Shown here piece after piece: positions 52,757 to 63,994 of a DNA stretch of 64,000 bases. This DNA comes from Nitrosococcus halophilus Nc 4. Its GTDB lineage: Bacteria; Pseudomonadota; Gammaproteobacteria; Nitrosococcales; Nitrosococcaceae. The stretch is from assembly GCF_000024725.1 (NCBI RefSeq), contig NC_013960.1, forward strand, positions 3,024,001 through 3,088,000. Reading direction: 5' to 3'. How positions within the stretch are numbered: the first letter of the stretch is position 1; the number at the start of each line of letters is the position of its first letter. The position numbers and the translations under genes were made by a program. Under the pieces are notes generated by a model that was not told where the DNA came from, ran no database searches, and worked only from the letters and a program-made list of their open reading frames with translations.

Positions 52757-54430
52757 ATGAGCACACGATCCGTCGCCTTATACGCCCGAGTCTCGTCTGA
52801 GCACCAGGCCCAGGCGCAAACTATTCAAAGCCAGCTGGCGGCGCTCCGTGAGCGCATTGAGGGCGATGGGGAGCGGCTCTGCCCCGAGCATGAATTTATC
52901 GATGCCGGCTACAGCGGCTCGACGCTGATCCGCCCGGCGTTGGAGCGGCTGCGAGATGCCGTTGCGGGCGGCGAAGTCGAGCGGGTGTATGTGTACTCGC
53001 CGGATCGCCTGGCACGAAAGTACGCCTATCAAGTGATGCTGGTCGATGAGTTTCAGCGCGTGGGCGTGGAGCTGGTATTTTGCAACCGCCCGCTGGGCCA
53101 GTCGCCGGAAGATGATCTGCTGCTGCAGATGCAGGGTATGATTGCCGAATACGAGCGCGCGCAGATGCTCGAGCGCAGCCGCCGGGGCAAACGTCATAAA
53201 GCCCAGCAGGGTTCAGTCAACGTGCTCTGCGGTGCACCCTACGGTTATCGCTATATCACCCGGATCGAAGGAAGTGGCGAGGCGTGCTATGAGATCGTTG
53301 ATGAGCAGGCCCAGGTGGTGCGCCAGATCTTCGACTGGGTGGGCCGCGAGCGGCTCAGTATCGGCGAGGTGCAGCGCCGCCTGAGCGAAGCCCCCACCTT
53401 GACTCCGGCGGGCAAGACCTGGTGGGATCGCAGCACGCTCTGGGGCATTTTGAAAAATCCCGCCTATAAAGGCCAGGCAGCGTTTGGCAAGACCCGCGCC
53501 GGTGAGCTGCGTCCCCGGCTGCGCGAACAGCGTGGGCGCACGCTGCAGCCACGGCGGGCACGCTCCACCTATGACCTACCCGTTAACCAATGGCTATCGA
53601 TTCCCGTCCCCCCGCTCGTTGATGAGGCGCTGTTTGAGGCCGTGCAGGCCCAGCTGGAAGAGAACCGCCGCCGGGCACGTAGTGGCCAGCGGGGGGCGAA
53701 GTATTTACTACAAGGATTGTTGGTCTGCAGCTGCTGCGGCTATGCTTTCTACGGCAAGCCACTCAGCCCGAGCGCCCGCAAATACCATCCGCGCGAGTAC
53801 GCCTACTACCGGTGTGTGGGCAGCGATGCCTACCGCTTCGGCGGCCAGCGGCTCTGCTACAACAAACCGGTGCGTACCGATCGGCTGGAGCAGGCGGTCT
53901 GGTCGCAAGTCTGCCGGCTACTCGAAGATCCCCAGCGGTTAACCGAGGAATACCAGCGTCGGTTGGAAGCGGTTCAGCTCTCGCCTGGTGAAGCCGATGC
54001 TGCGTGGGTGGAGAAGAGCCTCACCAAAGTGCGACAGGGCATTGCCCGACTGATCGACGGCTATGCCGAGGGCTACCTGGACAAGAGCGAAGCTGAACCG
54101 CGCATCCGGCGCTTTAAGGAGCGACTGCAGGCGCTCGAAGCTCAAGCCGAGCAATTGCGCGCCCAGGCCCAGCAGCAGGCCGATTTACAGCTTGTCATCG
54201 GCCGGCTGGAGGCGTTCAGTGCCCAGGTTAAAATGGGGCTGGAACAGCTCGATTGGGGCGGCCGCCGGGCGTTGATCCGCACCCTGGTTAAACGGATTGA
54301 GATTGACCAGGAGCGTATCAACGTGGTATTTCGTGTCGATGAGGGGACGCTTCCACCGGGAAATACCCCTTTTAGGCAACATTGTGGGAAGGGTATTGTC
54401 GCCATTTTTATCGAATGTGGTGCTGGATGA
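52757..54430 (+). CDS. Large serine recombinase
   Basis: 557 residues. The N-terminal resolvase domain has the nucleophile in LYARVSSEHQAQAQT (Ser about 12-13) and RLARKYAYQ. A recombinase domain (GAPYGYRYI to about 280), a zinc ribbon (LLVCSCCGYAFYGKPLS and the later GGQRLCYNK) and a coiled coil (about 400-490) follow. All parts look intact. The last 15 or so residues run into the reverse-transcriptase fragment in another frame, so the natural C terminus may be altered. GC content is visibly higher than in the flanking genes. Probably the integrase of a lost or degraded element. Confidence 0.88.
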   Translation: MSTRSVALYARVSSEHQAQAQTIQSQLAALRERIEGDGERLCPEHEFIDAGYSGSTLIRPALERLRDAVAGGEVERVYVYSPDRLARKYAYQVMLVDEFQRVGVELVFCNRPLGQSPEDDLLLQMQGMIAEYERAQMLERSRRGKRHKAQQGSVNVLCGAPYGYRYITRIEGSGEACYEIVDEQAQVVRQIFDWVGRERLSIGEVQRRLSEAPTLTPAGKTWWDRSTLWGILKNPAYKGQAAFGKTRAGELRPRLREQRGRTLQPRRARSTYDLPVNQWLSIPVPPLVDEALFEAVQAQLEENRRRARSGQRGAKYLLQGLLVCSCCGYAFYGKPLSPSARKYHPREYAYYRCVGSDAYRFGGQRLCYNKPVRTDRLEQAVWSQVCRLLEDPQRLTEEYQRRLEAVQLSPGEADAAWVEKSLTKVRQGIARLIDGYAEGYLDKSEAEPRIRRFKERLQALEAQAEQLRAQAQQQADLQLVIGRLEAFSAQVKMGLEQLDWGGRRALIRTLVKRIEIDQERINVVFRVDEGTLPPGNTPFRQHCGKGIVAIFIECGAG

Positions 54431-54803
54431 GTTGGATCAGGAGCTGGAACGGCGCGGGCACTACTTCGTGCGTTACGGCGATGACTGTAATGTCTATGTC
54501 AAAAGCCAACGGGCCGGGGAGCGGGTGATGGATAGCCTTAGGCGCTTCATTACGGGACGGCTGAAGCTCAAGGTCAATGAGGCGAAGAGTGCGGTTGATG
54601 TCCCGCAGAAACGGCAATTTCTGGGCTTTATTTTCACGGCGGGACGGTGGCCGAACCGACGCAAAATCGCTCCCGAATCTCTCCAACGGTTCAAAGCACG
54701 AGTCCGTCAGTTGACGAAGCGGAACTGGAGCATCAGCCTGGAGGAGCGGGTCGATCGGCTGGCGAGGTACCTGAGGGGATGGAAGGCTTACTTTGGCTTC
54801 TGT
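54391..54803 (+). pseudogene. Group II intron reverse transcriptase/maturase fragment
   Basis: About 138 codons matching the middle and thumb of bacterial group II intron proteins: RVLSPFLSNVVLDELDQELE, VRYGDDCNVYV (catalytic Asp pair, with Gly where most have Ala), LKLKVNEAKSAVDVP, FLGFIFTAGRWP, RRKIAPESLQRFKARVRQLT and YLRGWKAYFGFC. The N-terminal reverse-transcriptase blocks and the end of the maturase are gone. It begins within the recombinase 3' end and stops abruptly at 54803 against a GlxA-like gene, so it is a dead fragment. An open frame runs on to 54983. Confidence 0.85.
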
Positions 54804-55346
54804 CCAGGAGGTGCCGCCCCCTGCCATGATCAAGCGTTGGCCTTCACTGGAGACCACAAGTGCGCGTTGGGGATGTACCTTGATTTTCGGGAAACGATGA
54901 CGCATCACGTCGCACCAGGCCCAATGGGTGGTGGCTTCGCAGCCATCCAACAGTCCTGCCTCGGCAAACAACATCGCCCCTGAGCAGGCCGAGGCGAGTA
55001 CGGCACCTTCCGCGTAACGCTGTTTGAGCCAACCAATCTCGTCATGATAACGGCCGGCAAGGGGGGCGCCTGGAGGTAGGTTAACTTCCGGCACGCAGAT
55101 GAGCGCATTCTCCGGGCACTGGGCCATTGTGGTATGGGGTGACATATACACCCCATTGCCCGCAGCGAAAGGTTCTTGCTGCTTGGCGACCAGTAGCGGC
55201 CGAATCAATTCGGGGCCAGGGCGGCCCTCCGTGACGATGCTCCAATCCCGCCCGGCTGATAGAAACAAGTCGTACATGCCGTAAACCACCGACCCCGTAG
55301 TCTCAGGGAATACCAGGATCGCGATGTTGACGGGCGCCGTAGTCAT
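54804..55346 (-). pseudogene. GlxA-type DJ-1/PfpI regulator truncated by the intron fragment
   Basis: The first 181 codons are the amidotransferase-like sensor domain of GlxA/AraC-family regulators: NIAILVFPETTGSVVYGMYD, VLASACSGAMLFAEAGLLDG (the Cys elbow), EATTHWAWCDVMRHRFP and LIMAGGGTSW. After that Trp (54804-54806) homology ends exactly where the reverse-transcriptase fragment begins on the other strand; the open frame continues to 54408 as antisense sequence. The AraC DNA-binding domain is therefore lost. ATG 55346 is used; TTG 55373 is in frame. Divergent from the homocysteine methyltransferase gene, its likely former target. Confidence 0.8.
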
Positions 55347-60365: not shown

Positions 60366-62765
60366 ATGACAATGGACCCCCTCAACCAAGAACATCAGCG
60401 CTTAAAAGAGCGCCTGGAACGGGGCGAGATGACGCCAGCCGAGTATGAAAAGGAACGGCAGCGCCTGGAGGAATCCGCTGGTCAGGGCCAGTCTGCTGAT
60501 CCTTTTGAGACTCCAGTTTATCACCCGCCCCCTTCTACCCGACTGACGAACTTGGCGCCCGGGCTGGAGATAGGCCCCGAAGACCACCGGTTTCGGTTGG
60601 TGTGCAAAATTGGCGGAGGGGCCATGGGGCAGGTATGGCAAGCCCACGATCTGGTCGAAGAAGAACTGGAGGGCGGCGAGCGCTATAAGGCGCTAAAAGT
60701 CATCCATCCCCAATTGCAGGACTTAGCCCGTGCCTTGAAGATGCTCAAGCGGGAAGCGGTGCGGGCCTCCCAATTGACCCATCCCAATATTATCAATGTT
60801 CGCGGCTGCCGGCAGGGGAAAGACGGCTGGCTGTTCGTAGTCATGGACTATTTGGAAGGCCGAGATTTGGACCGGTTGCTGCTAGAGGACGGAAAGCCAG
60901 GGTTGTCCTGGGAACGGACTCGGGAACTTCTCAAGCCTCTGGCCGAGGGGCTGGATTATGCCCATACCCAGGGAGTTCTGCACCGGGATCTCAAGCCGGG
61001 TAATGTGTTTATCACCCATGAAGGCCAGGTGAAGTTATTGGACTTTGGCCTGGCCTATCGCTTGCATCAGGCTAGCACCTTAATGAAGGTGGAGGAACCC
61101 GATACTAGCGGCACCCCAGAATATATGCCCCCGGAAGCTTTTGTGGCAGGAGAGCCGGATAAGAGCCGGGACATTTATGCCCTAGCCTGTTTGACTTATG
61201 AGATGCTCACTGGCGAGCCGCCCTATAACCCCCAGGCGGCGGTGCAGCGCCAGCCGGATTTGATGCCCGGTAAGCCGGAAGGATTAACCGACGCGGCCTG
61301 GGAAGTGCTCCAATCGGGATTGGCTTACCATAAGGAAAATCGTCCCGAAAGTGCGGGGGAGTTGGTGCAGCGTTTGGAAGCAGCACAAGCCATCACCCCA
61401 GAAACCGGAGAGCCGGAGGAAGCGCCAGCTCGAGAGACAGCCGCTCCTGAATCGCCATCAGAGAAAGCCCCCGAACATTCTCCTGGGGGCAGTGGTCGGC
61501 CTTGGCTGATTGGGTTAGTGCTTCTGGTGATGGGAGGAGGGGTTTTTTACCTTTGGGAACCGGAAGCGCCTAGTCCCCCTCCTGTATCACCACCAAGGGA
61601 GAGGGAGGAACCGAAGCCAAAGGTGCCGTCAAAGCCCGAACTGCCCTCTCCGCAAAAAGTGGAAGCCGAGTTTGATCTCAGTACTTCTCAACGAGTACAG
61701 GTGCAACGTGCGCTCGATATACTCGGTCATGATCCACAGGGGGTGGATGGAATTTTTGGGCCCAAGACAGAGGACGCGATTCGTTCCTGGCAGCGAGCCG
61801 AGGGATTAGAACCTACCGGGGATCTTACACAAGCCACCTATGAACAGTTGATGGCGGCGGCTCGGCAACAGCGGGAAGAGAAAGCGCCAAGGTCCTCTGC
61901 CGAACCCAAACTGCCGCCGATGCAAAACATCCATGGTTGGTCGTCAGCCAAGGTTGAGGCGTTGCAGCGGCAGACTGCGGAAGCCTTAGAGCAGCCGGTG
62001 GTGTTTCAAGACCGGTTGGGGGACGGCAGTCGTGGTCCGGAGATGGTCATCATCCCGGCGGGGGAGTTCTTAATGGGTTCGCCAGAGAGTGAAGCAGGTC
62101 GAGATGATGGTGAAGAGCAGCATAGTGTCCAGATTACACGGCCTTTTGCCATAGGCCGCTACGAAGTTACCTTTGAAGACTATGATCGCTTTGCAGTAGC
62201 GACAGGGCGGGATAAACCTGATGATGAAGGTTGGGGCCGTGGCCGGCGGCCCGTAATTAACGTGAGCTGGCATGATGCCACGGCGTATGCGGCGTGGTTA
62301 TCGGAGCAGACAGGACAAAAGTACCGCCTGCCGACGGAAGCAGAATGGGAATATGCGGCGCGTGCGGGGACGGTTACGGCGCGCTATTGGGGGGAGAATT
62401 CTGGTGAAGGGTGTGAATATGCTAATGCAGCGGATCGGACGGCAAAAGAGAAATTTTCAGGATGGTCGGTGATGGACTGTCAAGATGGCTATGTTTATAC
62501 GGCTCGTGTGGGGAGTTTTCGTGCTAATAATTTTGGGTTGCACGATGCCTTAGGCAACGTGTGGGAGTGGACGTGCTCTGAGTATGATGAGAATTATTCT
62601 GGTGCAGAGACTCGATGTATAAGCAAAAATCATGCCGGCCCTCGGGTGTTCTGGGGCGGTTCCTGGGACAGCTTCCCGCACAATGTGCGTTCAGCTAACC
62701 GATTCGGGGACTGGCCAGACTACCGGAACAACGACCTGGGGTTTCGTCTTGCCAGGGATTTATAA
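60366..62765 (+). CDS. Ser/Thr kinase - peptidoglycan-binding - formylglycine-generating-enzyme fusion
   Basis: 799 residues. Kinase domain about 77-340: glycine loop IGGGAMGQVW, HRDLKPGNVF (about 205), LDFGLAYR, GTPEYMPPEAF. One membrane helix about 377-397 (WLIGLVLLVMGGGVFYLW), then a Pro-rich stalk, a peptidoglycan-binding domain about 440-500 (GVDGIFGPKTEDAIRSWQ) and an FGE/C-type-lectin-fold domain from about 555 (IIPAGEFLMGSP, YRLPTEAEWEYAARAG, NVWEWTCSEY) to the end. The kinase faces the cytoplasm; the rest is periplasmic. The final 30 codons look like a retroelement variable repeat (see findings). An FHA gene lies nearby. Confidence 0.9.
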   Translation: MTMDPLNQEHQRLKERLERGEMTPAEYEKERQRLEESAGQGQSADPFETPVYHPPPSTRLTNLAPGLEIGPEDHRFRLVCKIGGGAMGQVWQAHDLVEEELEGGERYKALKVIHPQLQDLARALKMLKREAVRASQLTHPNIINVRGCRQGKDGWLFVVMDYLEGRDLDRLLLEDGKPGLSWERTRELLKPLAEGLDYAHTQGVLHRDLKPGNVFITHEGQVKLLDFGLAYRLHQASTLMKVEEPDTSGTPEYMPPEAFVAGEPDKSRDIYALACLTYEMLTGEPPYNPQAAVQRQPDLMPGKPEGLTDAAWEVLQSGLAYHKENRPESAGELVQRLEAAQAITPETGEPEEAPARETAAPESPSEKAPEHSPGGSGRPWLIGLVLLVMGGGVFYLWEPEAPSPPPVSPPREREEPKPKVPSKPELPSPQKVEAEFDLSTSQRVQVQRALDILGHDPQGVDGIFGPKTEDAIRSWQRAEGLEPTGDLTQATYEQLMAAARQQREEKAPRSSAEPKLPPMQNIHGWSSAKVEALQRQTAEALEQPVVFQDRLGDGSRGPEMVIIPAGEFLMGSPESEAGRDDGEEQHSVQITRPFAIGRYEVTFEDYDRFAVATGRDKPDDEGWGRGRRPVINVSWHDATAYAAWLSEQTGQKYRLPTEAEWEYAARAGTVTARYWGENSGEGCEYANAADRTAKEKFSGWSVMDCQDGYVYTARVGSFRANNFGLHDALGNVWEWTCSEYDENYSGAETRCISKNHAGPRVFWGGSWDSFPHNVRSANRFGDWPDYRNNDLGFRLARDL
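62667..62756 (+). repeat. Candidate diversity-generating-retroelement variable repeat
   Basis: Last 30 codons of the kinase-FGE gene. Eleven of twelve Asn/Asp/Phe/His/Tyr codons here end in C, against three of 22 in the preceding 240 bases (hand count). This is what adenine-directed mutation of AAC codons in a template would leave. The 3' part (62736-62756) would be the invariant target end. No template or retron-type reverse transcriptase is in the window. Confidence 0.45.
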
Positions 62766-62796
62766 CCCTTTGTTCTTTATGCTTTTACCCTTTACG
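62763..62796 (+). repeat. 34-base imperfect direct repeat, copy A
   Basis: Begins with the TAA stop of the kinase-FGE gene and ends TTTTACCCTTTACG. It matches 62929-62962 at 29 of 34 positions. The copies flank the GC hairpin and the MITE-like element. Confidence 0.7.
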
Positions 62797-62801
62797 GGGG
62801 T

Positions 62802-62822
62802 CCAGGGGGCGAAGCCCCCTGG
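62802..62822 (+). promoter_or_regulatory. GC-rich hairpin after the kinase-FGE gene
   Basis: CCAGGGGGC-GAA-GCCCCCTGG, perfect nine-base arms, starting 37 bases after the stop codon. No T run. It could be a terminator stem, a dispersed repeat, or the cruciform that many diversity-generating retroelements need beside their target. Confidence 0.7.
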
Positions 62823-62831
62823 TCGCGTCCT

Positions 62832-62927
62832 ATAGCGTTTCCCTTATTAGGAGAGATACAGTTAGATTAAGAGGTTAAGATCCTGGTAGGTTGATATTTG
62901 TGTCCTAATTTATTCGGGAAACGCTAT
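62832..62927. mobile_element. 96-base MITE-like element
   Basis: Terminal inverted repeats ATAGCGTTTCCC (62832-62843) and GGGAAACGCTAT (62916-62927) match perfectly, with a second inner pair ATTAGGA (62846-62852) and TCCTAAT (62903-62909). T/TA flanks resemble the TA target of IS630/Tc1-type elements. Too short to code for a transposase, so it would need one in trans. Confidence 0.75.
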
Positions 62928-62928
62928 G

Positions 62929-62962
62929 TAACCCTTCGGGTTTTATTCTTTTACCCTTTACG
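62929..62962 (+). repeat. 34-base imperfect direct repeat, copy B
   Basis: Same sequence class as 62763-62796, now upstream of the DUF433 gene. Contains the terminator described at 62930-62952. Confidence 0.7.
62930..62952 (+). terminator. Rho-independent terminator
   Basis: AACCC-TTC-GGGTT stem followed by TTATTCTTTT. Short stem but a proper T-rich tail. It probably ends transcription from the kinase-FGE side before the DUF433 gene. Confidence 0.5.
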
Positions 62963-62973
62963 AGGAAACTGAA

Positions 62974-63198
62974 ATGGTAGAAATAGCCGAACGCATTACT
63001 ATAGATCCCGAGCAGTGCGGGGGCAGGCCGTGTATTCGTGGTATGAGGATTCGCGTAACGGATGTGTTGGAGTTCCTGGCTTCAGGGCTGTCTCAGCAAC
63101 AGATACTCGATGAAATGCCCGATCTGGAGGCGGAAGATATCCAAGCATGTCTTCGGTACGCCACCCGCCATCTAGATCATCCGGTGATTGCCATGTGA
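62974..63198 (+). CDS. DUF433 antitoxin (orphan)
   Basis: 74 residues, DUF433 family. ITIDPEQCGGRPCIRGMRI, TDVLEFLASGLSQQQILDEM and the C-terminal LRYATRHLDHP are standard. These are winged-helix antitoxins usually paired with a PIN-like DUF5615 toxin directly downstream; here the next gene is on the other strand, so the toxin is missing. GAGGAAAC precedes the ATG. Confidence 0.8.
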   Translation: MVEIAERITIDPEQCGGRPCIRGMRIRVTDVLEFLASGLSQQQILDEMPDLEAEDIQACLRYATRHLDHPVIAM

Positions 63199-63226: not shown

Positions 63227-63994
63227 TTAGCCTACTTGCTCTCCCGGATAGGCCCCTATTTGGAACTCAAATAGCAATGGACCCACTTCTACCAAGTCGC
63301 CCTGCCGAAGCCCAACTCTCATTCCCGGTGAGATAGACTGGCCATTAATCGTCACAGGCGTGTTTTGTCCTACAATTACAAAACCCCCTTCCTGGTAGCT
63401 TAGCTCAGCAAGATGGTTTTCATCCGTCTCACTTACTTTGATAGCGGCCTCTTCACTGTTTCCCATCATTGCAGTACCAGTACCCCGAAGAAATAGATAA
63501 TTTTCCACCTGGGGACTGTCATTGACCCGATCCAGCCTCAACCACCGAGTAGGTTCAAGGCGGACCCGCAGTTGTAATGCCTCATGACAGAAGCTAATGA
63601 GATCTCCATTGTGTAAGGCTTGCCACTTCCCGCCCTTAAGGGTAGTGCCATTGACCTTGGTGCCGCCTTTGGAGTGGTCATCCCGAATCTTAGCCTGTGC
63701 ATTCATACTCACCACAGCATGAGTCTCACTAAAGCTATCCATCCGGGTTTGGTTGTCGGGTTCATCCAGGGGAAACAGGGCCAGCCAAAGGTCGGCGGTG
63801 AGCTTGGGCCGGCCTAAAATGATTTGGGGACGAGCAAAAAGGCGGGTCAGCGACACCGAGGAGCCTTTCAAAAATTGCAACCGGGCGCCGGTGGCTTTTT
63901 GGGGTAAGGGGCGCGGAGCCATGGGCTGCAACGCCTCTGTTGCTGAGGGTTCGCAGGCGGCCTTTATGACTTTAGCAATTTTGACTAAGGCCAT
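63227..63994 (-). CDS. Protein with two FHA-type domains
   Basis: 255 residues in view; the start is only six bases from the window edge, so the gene may begin further right. A first FHA-like domain (about 50-145) has IILGRP, SETHAVVSM and KVNGTTLKGGKW; a second (about 180-245) has GFVIVGQNTPVTINGQSISP and RQGDLVEVG. FHA domains bind phosphothreonine, so a link to the nearby Ser/Thr kinase-FGE protein is likely though the genes are convergent. Confidence 0.75.
   Translation of the reverse strand: MALVKIAKVIKAACEPSATEALQPMAPRPLPQKATGARLQFLKGSSVSLTRLFARPQIILGRPKLTADLWLALFPLDEPDNQTRMDSFSETHAVVSMNAQAKIRDDHSKGGTKVNGTTLKGGKWQALHNGDLISFCHEALQLRVRLEPTRWLRLDRVNDSPQVENYLFLRGTGTAMMGNSEEAAIKVSETDENHLAELSYQEGGFVIVGQNTPVTINGQSISPGMRVGLRQGDLVEVGPLLFEFQIGAYPGEQVG

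What the first reader, a model, noticed from the sequence alone, without database searches (positions are those of the whole stretch)
62278..62822. Kinase-FGE gene ends in a sequence with the marks of a retroelement variable repeat
The C-lectin/FGE fold is the classic target of diversity-generating retroelements, with changes confined to its last codons. Here codons 62667-62735 use C-ending Asn/Asp/Phe/His/Tyr codons 11 times in 12, while the preceding 240 bases do so 3 times in 22 (hand counts). Template AAC codons randomised at A would give exactly NNC. GGG and TGG could likewise come from AGG. A GC-rich hairpin follows the stop by 37 bases, as cruciforms do at known targets. A membrane kinase with a changeable periplasmic sensor would be a tunable receptor. 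The sequence is seen; the mechanism is inferred, with template and reverse transcriptase supplied from elsewhere.
Basis: partly seen in the sequence, partly recalled or inferred. Interest (0 to 1): 0.82.

Follow-up and report, generated by a model that had tools for sequence, protein, structure and literature searches.

The report
Orphaned DGR target gene, retroelement decayed
A membrane kinase gene ends in a stretch that carries the marks of having been rewritten by a mutation-making retroelement, but in this genome the retroelement survives only as broken pieces, so the receptor was probably once changeable and is now frozen.

Summary
The gene (60366-62765: Ser/Thr kinase, membrane helix, PG_binding_1, FGE/C-lectin domain) ends in a variable repeat of diversity-generating-retroelement (DGR) type. 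Against a real template repeat from another genome (L170), C-ending codons fall at 12 of 13 template-Asn positions and 0 of 10 others (p=1e-5). Two tail-less homologues and a paralogue in this genome lack the pattern. Behind the stop codon lie a non-coding tail and a GC hairpin shared with FGE genes of distant gammaproteobacteria, some with proven templates. A model trained without this gene scores it best among 369 class genomes.

A template and reverse transcriptase acting from elsewhere are not supported. The nearly complete genome shows no template (control). Its only DGR-type reverse transcriptase is a C-terminal remnant 1.57 Mb away, beginning in a damaged YxDD motif, beside a piece of Avd. 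Best explanation: an orphaned, frozen remote DGR target. Kinase-lectin targets, remote targets and decayed DGRs are already in print. The shared tail, which finds targets without a template, may be new. Variation between strains could not be tested.

The parts
60366..62765 (+). Kinase-FGE gene, 799 aa
   Evidence: Open frame; Pfam domains
60600..61238 (+). Protein kinase domain, aa 79-291
   Evidence: PF00069 E=1.6e-39
61500..61556 (+). Likely membrane helix, aa 379-397; puts the C-terminal part outside the cytoplasm (inferred)
   Evidence: Hydropathy maximum
61686..61850 (+). PG_binding_1 domain, aa 441-495
   Evidence: PF01471 E=2e-15
62034..62756 (+). FGE/C-lectin domain, aa 557-797, host of the variable repeat
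   Evidence: PF03781 E=1.4e-52; fold model matches PvdO, FGE and the DGR-diversified protein TvpA
62652..62756 (+). Variable repeat (limits approximate); varied codons at 62667-62735
   Evidence: C-ending codons at 12 of 13 template-Asn positions and 0 of 10 others against the L170 template
62739..62795 (+). Unvaried 3' end of the repeat plus conserved non-coding tail (non-coding from 62766)
   Evidence: Model R1, trained without this gene: 50.1 bits, E=7.3e-15; best of 369 class genomes
62802..62822 (+). GC-rich hairpin, 9-bp stem, 3-nt loop
   Evidence: DNA fold z=-2.83, 1 of 200 shuffles as good; 16-base core also in L033 and in no other foreign locus of the 244 fetched
62832..62927 (.). 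MITE-like element with 12-base inverted ends between the hairpin and a second tail copy
   Evidence: Exact inverted pair ATAGCGTTTCCC
62927..62961 (+). Second, weaker copy of the tail, perhaps the rest of a lost second target
   Evidence: R1 18.6 bits, E=5.2e-5; 29 of 35 bases as in the first copy

Best explanation
The gene is a remote target of a DGR that no longer works in this genome. In the past an error-prone DGR reverse transcriptase with Avd copied a template RNA, put random bases opposite its adenines, and the cDNA replaced the last ~100 bases of this gene, anchored by the unvaried 3' end and by the tail and hairpin behind it. That left NNC and GGG/TGG codons in the binding region of the FGE domain of a membrane kinase. 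Later the reverse transcriptase and avd were broken and the template was lost, so the repeat is frozen. Shown: codon pattern, shared tail, hairpin, no template found, remnants of reverse transcriptase and Avd. Inferred: the past mutagenesis, the order of losses, the receptor role, and (about 0.6) that the remnant at 1.515 Mb is what is left of the very DGR that served this gene.
For: C-ending codons at 12 of 13 template-Asn positions and 0 of 10 others. Tail scored 50.1 bits by a model trained without it, best of 369 class genomes. Genes with this tail have proven templates: L099, 0 violations of the adenine rule with 17 and 13 changes over 84 bases, and L170, 0 violations, 12 changes over 75 bases, in a whole cassette of target, tail, Avd, RT and template. 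In 14 readable foreign genes found by tail, 78 of 106 codons in the repeat end in C against 67 of 287 upstream. RT remnant in the own genome, E=1.9e-26; Avd remnant. The RT remnant is closest (66% and 62%) to RTs of G179 and G201, both among the 14 genomes with the tail.
Against: No template for this gene is known anywhere, so the adenine rule is tested only against foreign templates. TGG at 62712 does not fit the L170 template. A profile of non-coding bases alone gives the tail only E=0.0041 in the window. The hairpin has a 3-nt loop and lies 45 bases behind the repeat's conserved end, outside the 4-nt GRNA loops and 4-34 bp quoted for phage DGRs (PMC3240598, passages). The RT remnant has no tail near it and its neighbouring FGE gene shows no such codon pattern. 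No strain or read data. The closest full-length relatives, L107 and L108, lack the pattern.
Confidence: 0.86

Rival explanations
1. The repeat was written in another host and came with the gene, or with its FGE end, by horizontal transfer, already frozen; the RT/Avd remnant at 1.515 Mb belonged to another DGR with other targets. This is a variant of the best explanation, not its opposite.
For: The three genus mates have no match to this 3' end and none of the five genomes of the genus and family searched besides the own has a full-length relative. The remnant has no tail near it. Tail and FGE end sit on different front domains elsewhere: caspase in L033 and L040, kinase in L093.
Against: The RT remnant belongs to the RT branch of two genomes that carry the same tail, an easy fit if both parts belonged together.
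Confidence: 0.3
2. The repeat is still being changed: a DGR of the species acts in trans from a mobile element absent from the sequenced strain, or from an unassembled part.
For: Tail, hairpin and reading frame are intact. Strains with intact and broken DGRs side by side are reported for Thiohalocapsa (PMC10907252, section 7).
Against: The genome is 2 contigs, 99.98% complete, without a template and without a whole DGR reverse transcriptase.
Confidence: 0.06
3. No DGR was ever involved: the codon run is chance, selection or local gene conversion in an ordinary FGE gene.
For: The C-terminal amino-acid motif is common in FGE proteins without such codons, for instance the own paralogues. The run was picked by eye in 64 kb.
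Against: C-ending codons are absent at the 10 non-Asn positions of the same 69 bases. The tail is shared with genes with proven templates. DGR RT and Avd remnants are in the genome.
Confidence: 0.05

Closest known systems
Cyanobacterial DGR targets with kinase + C-lectin domains, including remote ones (PMC7517822, passages read)
   Same: C-terminal C-lectin domain grafted to a Ser/Thr kinase; targets far from the DGR; one paralogue (all3226) with remnant template similarity and no RT nearby
   Different: There the genomes hold working-looking DGRs and templates; here only RT and Avd remnants and no template. Different phylum, FGE type with a shared downstream tail
Thiohalocapsa PB-PSB1 DGRs (PMC10907252: abstract, passages and sections 6, 7, 18 read)
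   Same: C-lectin/FGE targets joined to kinase, nSTAND and other effectors; DGR parts replaced by MITE-like arrays and transposons
   Different: There several DGRs are complete and diversified in nature; here the DGR is dead as far as the assembly shows
Gammaproteobacterial FGE cassette L170 (genome G182) and Thiosymbion L099
   Same: FGE target, repeat, tail; template rule proven by sequence
   Different: They carry their template; L170 has whole Avd and RT, while beside L099's template only an RT N-terminal-like piece was seen
BPP-1 and phage DGR target sites (PMC3240598, passages read)
   Same: Unvaried 3' end followed by a GC-rich hairpin used in homing
   Different: There 7-10 bp stems with 4-nt GRNA loops 4-34 bp behind the repeat; here 9 bp, 3-nt loop, 45 bases, with a pyrimidine-rich tail between

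Membership tests
DGR target (variable protein) | C-lectin fold carrying the variable repeat at its C-terminus | tested here: met
   PF03781; model pLDDT 88.4 matches PvdO/FGE and TvpA 2y3c, E=3.9e-15, TM 0.69
DGR target (variable protein) | Substitutions only where the template has A | tested here: inconclusive
   No own template; against the foreign L170 template NNC codons are at 12 of 13 Asn positions and 0 of 10 others, but TGG at 62712 does not fit it
DGR target (variable protein) | Homing signal behind the repeat (unvaried end, hairpin) | tested here: met
   R1 50.1 bits; hairpin; loop size and distance differ from the phage consensus
DGR target (variable protein) | Hypervariation among strains or in reads | not testable with these tools
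   No second strain or reads; genus mates have no match to this end
Complete DGR in this genome | Template repeat | tested here: not met
   BLAST of the 3' end: only itself, next match 24 bases at E=0.43; control finds a template at 85%, E=5.2e-31
Complete DGR in this genome | DGR-type reverse transcriptase with YxDD | tested here: not met
   Only C2:1514909-1515247, model 224-337 of 341, beginning VDHF; other RT hits are group II and retron type
Complete DGR in this genome | Avd accessory protein | tested here: not met
   Only a C-terminal piece beside the RT remnant, on the other strand: PF22296 E=8.8e-9, 36.3 bits, below its cut-off of 40; PHROG 'Avd protein of DGR' 2.9e-8

The most novel reading that the evidence does not exclude
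The tail (pyrimidine-rich tract like TAACCCTTTNTTNTTTATNCTTTTACCCTTT, then a GC-rich hairpin) is a lineage-wide homing address for DGR targets in gammaproteobacteria. It travels with the FGE end onto kinases, caspases and other effectors, marks targets even where no DGR or template is left, and would let an incoming DGR of the same lineage rewrite an orphan such as this gene.
Probability: 0.35. Interest if true: 0.68.

Novelty: new member of a known kind. Interest (0 to 1): 0.55.

Why it matters
It indicates that a DGR variable repeat can outlive its retroelement as a fixed part of a signalling protein, and that such orphans can be recognised without a template, by codon pattern and tail; surveys that start from template or reverse transcriptase would miss them. 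It puts a dead DGR in a genome that I take to be a nitrifier's (recalled, not tested). It also gives a testable candidate for the cis signal of remote targets, which PMC7517822 raises as a possibility (passages).

Tried and rejected
RT fragment at window 54297-54983: group II maturase C-terminus (PF08388, TIGR04416), not a DGR. RT at C2:1154005: best match retron St85 type, below that model's cut-off. C2:1960046-1960282: group II-like N-terminal piece in front of a transposase-like gene. FGE gene L010 beside the RT remnant as its local target: no tail, no codon pattern. Regional GC3 rise: against the 0 of 10 result. PF00078 and the two-sequence RT model A1 missed the RT remnant; the nine-sequence A2 found it. 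Plasmid records: 0 cover 80% of the protein. Tandem repeats at 62500-63100: none. PADLOC hits to the window gene lie in the kinase part in the 25 rows shown of 34 and were not used. The first codon test on tail hits misread many frames and was replaced. In one search the G201 gene L205 was readable: 9 of 9 in the repeat but 16 of 19 upstream, so its genome is C-rich and uninformative. Paper searches showed in their listings no description of this gene or tail; the library is partial. A template-like sequence printed was used in no search.

Full report
Observation. The gene at 60366-62765 encodes 799 aa: protein kinase (aa 79-291), a hydrophobic helix (379-397), PG_binding_1 (441-495), FGE-sulfatase domain (557-797). 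N/D/F/H/Y codons end in C 11 of 12 times at 62667-62735 against 8 of 43 in 62040-62640. Shuffling gives 0.0021 over the gene and 0.00045 over the FGE part; the region had been chosen by eye.

Is there a DGR in the genome? The genome has 4,145,260 bases in 2 contigs, 99.98% complete. From the size of the small contig I take it to be Nitrosococcus halophilus (recalled, not tested). BLAST of the 3' end finds itself; the next match is 24 bases at E=0.43. As a control, the same kind of search with a repeat of L099 finds its template at 85% identity, E=5.2e-31. PF00078 finds two RTs, a group II fragment and a retron-type one. A two-sequence DGR model adds only a group II-like piece. A nine-sequence DGR RT alignment (A2) finds C2:1514909-1515247 (-), E=1.9e-26, model positions 224-337 of 341; its two other hits in this genome are the group II pieces. 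The remnant begins VDHFALFSD where the related RTs L225 and L226 read VDDFALFS. On the other strand it abuts a C-terminal piece of Avd (PF22296 E=8.8e-9, below that model's cut-off; PHROG 'Avd protein of DGR' 2.9e-8). Transposase-like genes lie on one side (named by appearance), and bDLD3-nSTAND1-FGE and TIR-bDLD3 genes on the other. The remnant's best matches among 23 RT loci compared are those of G179 (66% over 113 residues) and G201 (62% over 115).

Relatives. A scan of one genome for each of 84,980 species found 215 stretches that encode a relative, of which the best 80 were kept; most of these are Beggiatoa-like bacteria. 217 of 369 class genomes have an FGE match. Many of these FGE genes end in the same codon pattern, many do not. 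Template pairs that obey the adenine rule: L099 (0 violations, 17 and 13 changes over 84 bases); L110/L170, L167, L166 and L198 (0 violations), L162, L148 and L183/L194 (1), L171 (3) over 75 bases. L170 is a whole cassette: FGE target, tail, Avd, RT, template.

The codon test. Against the L170 template, the window's 23 codons between SW and LGFR have C in third place at 12 of 13 Asn positions and 0 of 10 others (p=9.6e-6). The kinase-FGE homologues L107 and L108 give 4 of 13 against 5 of 10, and 4 of 13 against 6 of 10; the own paralogue L010 gives 7 of 13 against 6 of 10. Of five further genes, L033 (11 of 13, 2 of 10; p=0.003) and L040 (9, 1; p=0.01) behave like the window; L032 (8, 2), L201 (9, 4) and L026 (3, 3) do not reach 0.05 (all).

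The tail. From the stop codon on the window reads TAACCCTTTGTTCTTTATGCTTTTACCCTTTACGG. Of these 35 bases 31 agree with L040, 30 with L093, 27 with L033 and 13 with L170 in the register I used, which is off by two bases there; the tail model gives L170 30.1 bits. L033 also has the 16-base hairpin core, and its genome G379 holds DGR cassettes. Model R1, from 23 tails without the window gene, gives 50.1 bits at 62739-62795 (E=7.3e-15) and 18.6 bits at a second copy. It hits 14 of 369 class genomes, this gene best (strict filters, 15 candidates scored a genome). Of the 21 foreign tail hits, 14 have a readable FGE end and 7 were dropped (L203, L205, L207, L209, L210, L213, L216); L203 has a stop codon inside the repeat. 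The 14 pool to 78 of 106 C-ending codons in the repeat against 67 of 287 upstream (p=1.7e-19). They are not independent: 5 come from G182, whose cassette was in the training set, and 3 from G204; L202 has no upstream part and L201 and L215 were read short. 6 of the 14 tail genomes are among the 16 of 369 with the strongest DGR RT hits (E at or below 2.4e-60, a cut-off chosen afterwards; p=5.9e-6, lists typed); 8 of 14 are not, this genome among them. Among 118 FGE ends of the first two scans, tail and codon pattern occur together in 20, tail alone in 5, pattern alone in 20, neither in 73 (p=1.2e-7; rule and threshold set after looking, the window's own copy is one of the 20). Part of R1 is coding; a profile of non-coding bases alone gives the window tail E=0.0041.

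Structure. A model of aa 527-799 made with 41 sequences (pLDDT 88.4) is closest to PvdO and FGE; the DGR-diversified Treponema protein (2y3c) is matched at E=3.9e-15, TM 0.69.

How it works, in my view. A DGR once rewrote this repeat in trans, as remote targets are rewritten in cyanobacteria (PMC7517822, passages). Tail and hairpin guided the cDNA. RT and avd were then broken and the template vanished; transposase-like genes by the remnant and a MITE-like element behind the gene fit the decay described for Thiohalocapsa (PMC10907252, section 7). The kinase would now have one fixed binding face. That the remnant at 1.515 Mb served this gene is likely, not shown. A tree without the last 40 residues puts the window FGE nearest L026/L032 and L107/L108, with support of 0.60-0.89 on the nodes printed. 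G374, the draft genome of L026/L032, showed no RT by PF00078 or A2, though L032 has 8 of 8 C-ending codons against 6 of 26: perhaps another orphan.

Novelty. Kinase-lectin targets, caspase-lectin targets, remote targets and one paralogue with remnant template similarity are in print (PMC7517822). The gene is therefore a new member of a known kind. The shared tail was not seen described in the listings, a limited search.

Noticed in passing
window 54297-54983 and G000:C2:1960046-1960282 (L180): C-terminal and N-terminal pieces of group II intron RTs 1.1 Mb apart, the second cut by a transposase-like gene; perhaps halves of one kind of intron moved by rearrangement.
   Followed up: partly
L232 9609-12754 (G000:C2:1515608-1518753): bDLD3-nSTAND1-FGE gene next to a TIR-bDLD3 gene, a likely conflict system, beside the DGR RT/Avd remnant.
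   Followed up: partly
L099 11500-13040: Thiosymbion template between two FGE targets; next to it only an RT N-terminal-like piece was seen, fused in frame to the front of the second target.
   Followed up: partly
L203 about 1180-1345 (G179:C323): A DGR-type repeat with tail but an in-frame TGA inside the repeat.
   Followed up: no
L033 8900-10735; L040 8783-10684: Caspase (Peptidase_C14) + FGE genes with the same tail, the front domain differing from the window's kinase.
   Followed up: partly
window 62974-63198 and 63227-63994: DUF433 gene directly behind the second tail copy, then an FHA-domain gene on the other strand, a possible partner of the kinase.
   Followed up: no
L002 1423-2229 (G000:C2:1154005): RT best matched by the retron St85 model, below its cut-off, behind a short helix-turn-helix-like gene.
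   Followed up: no
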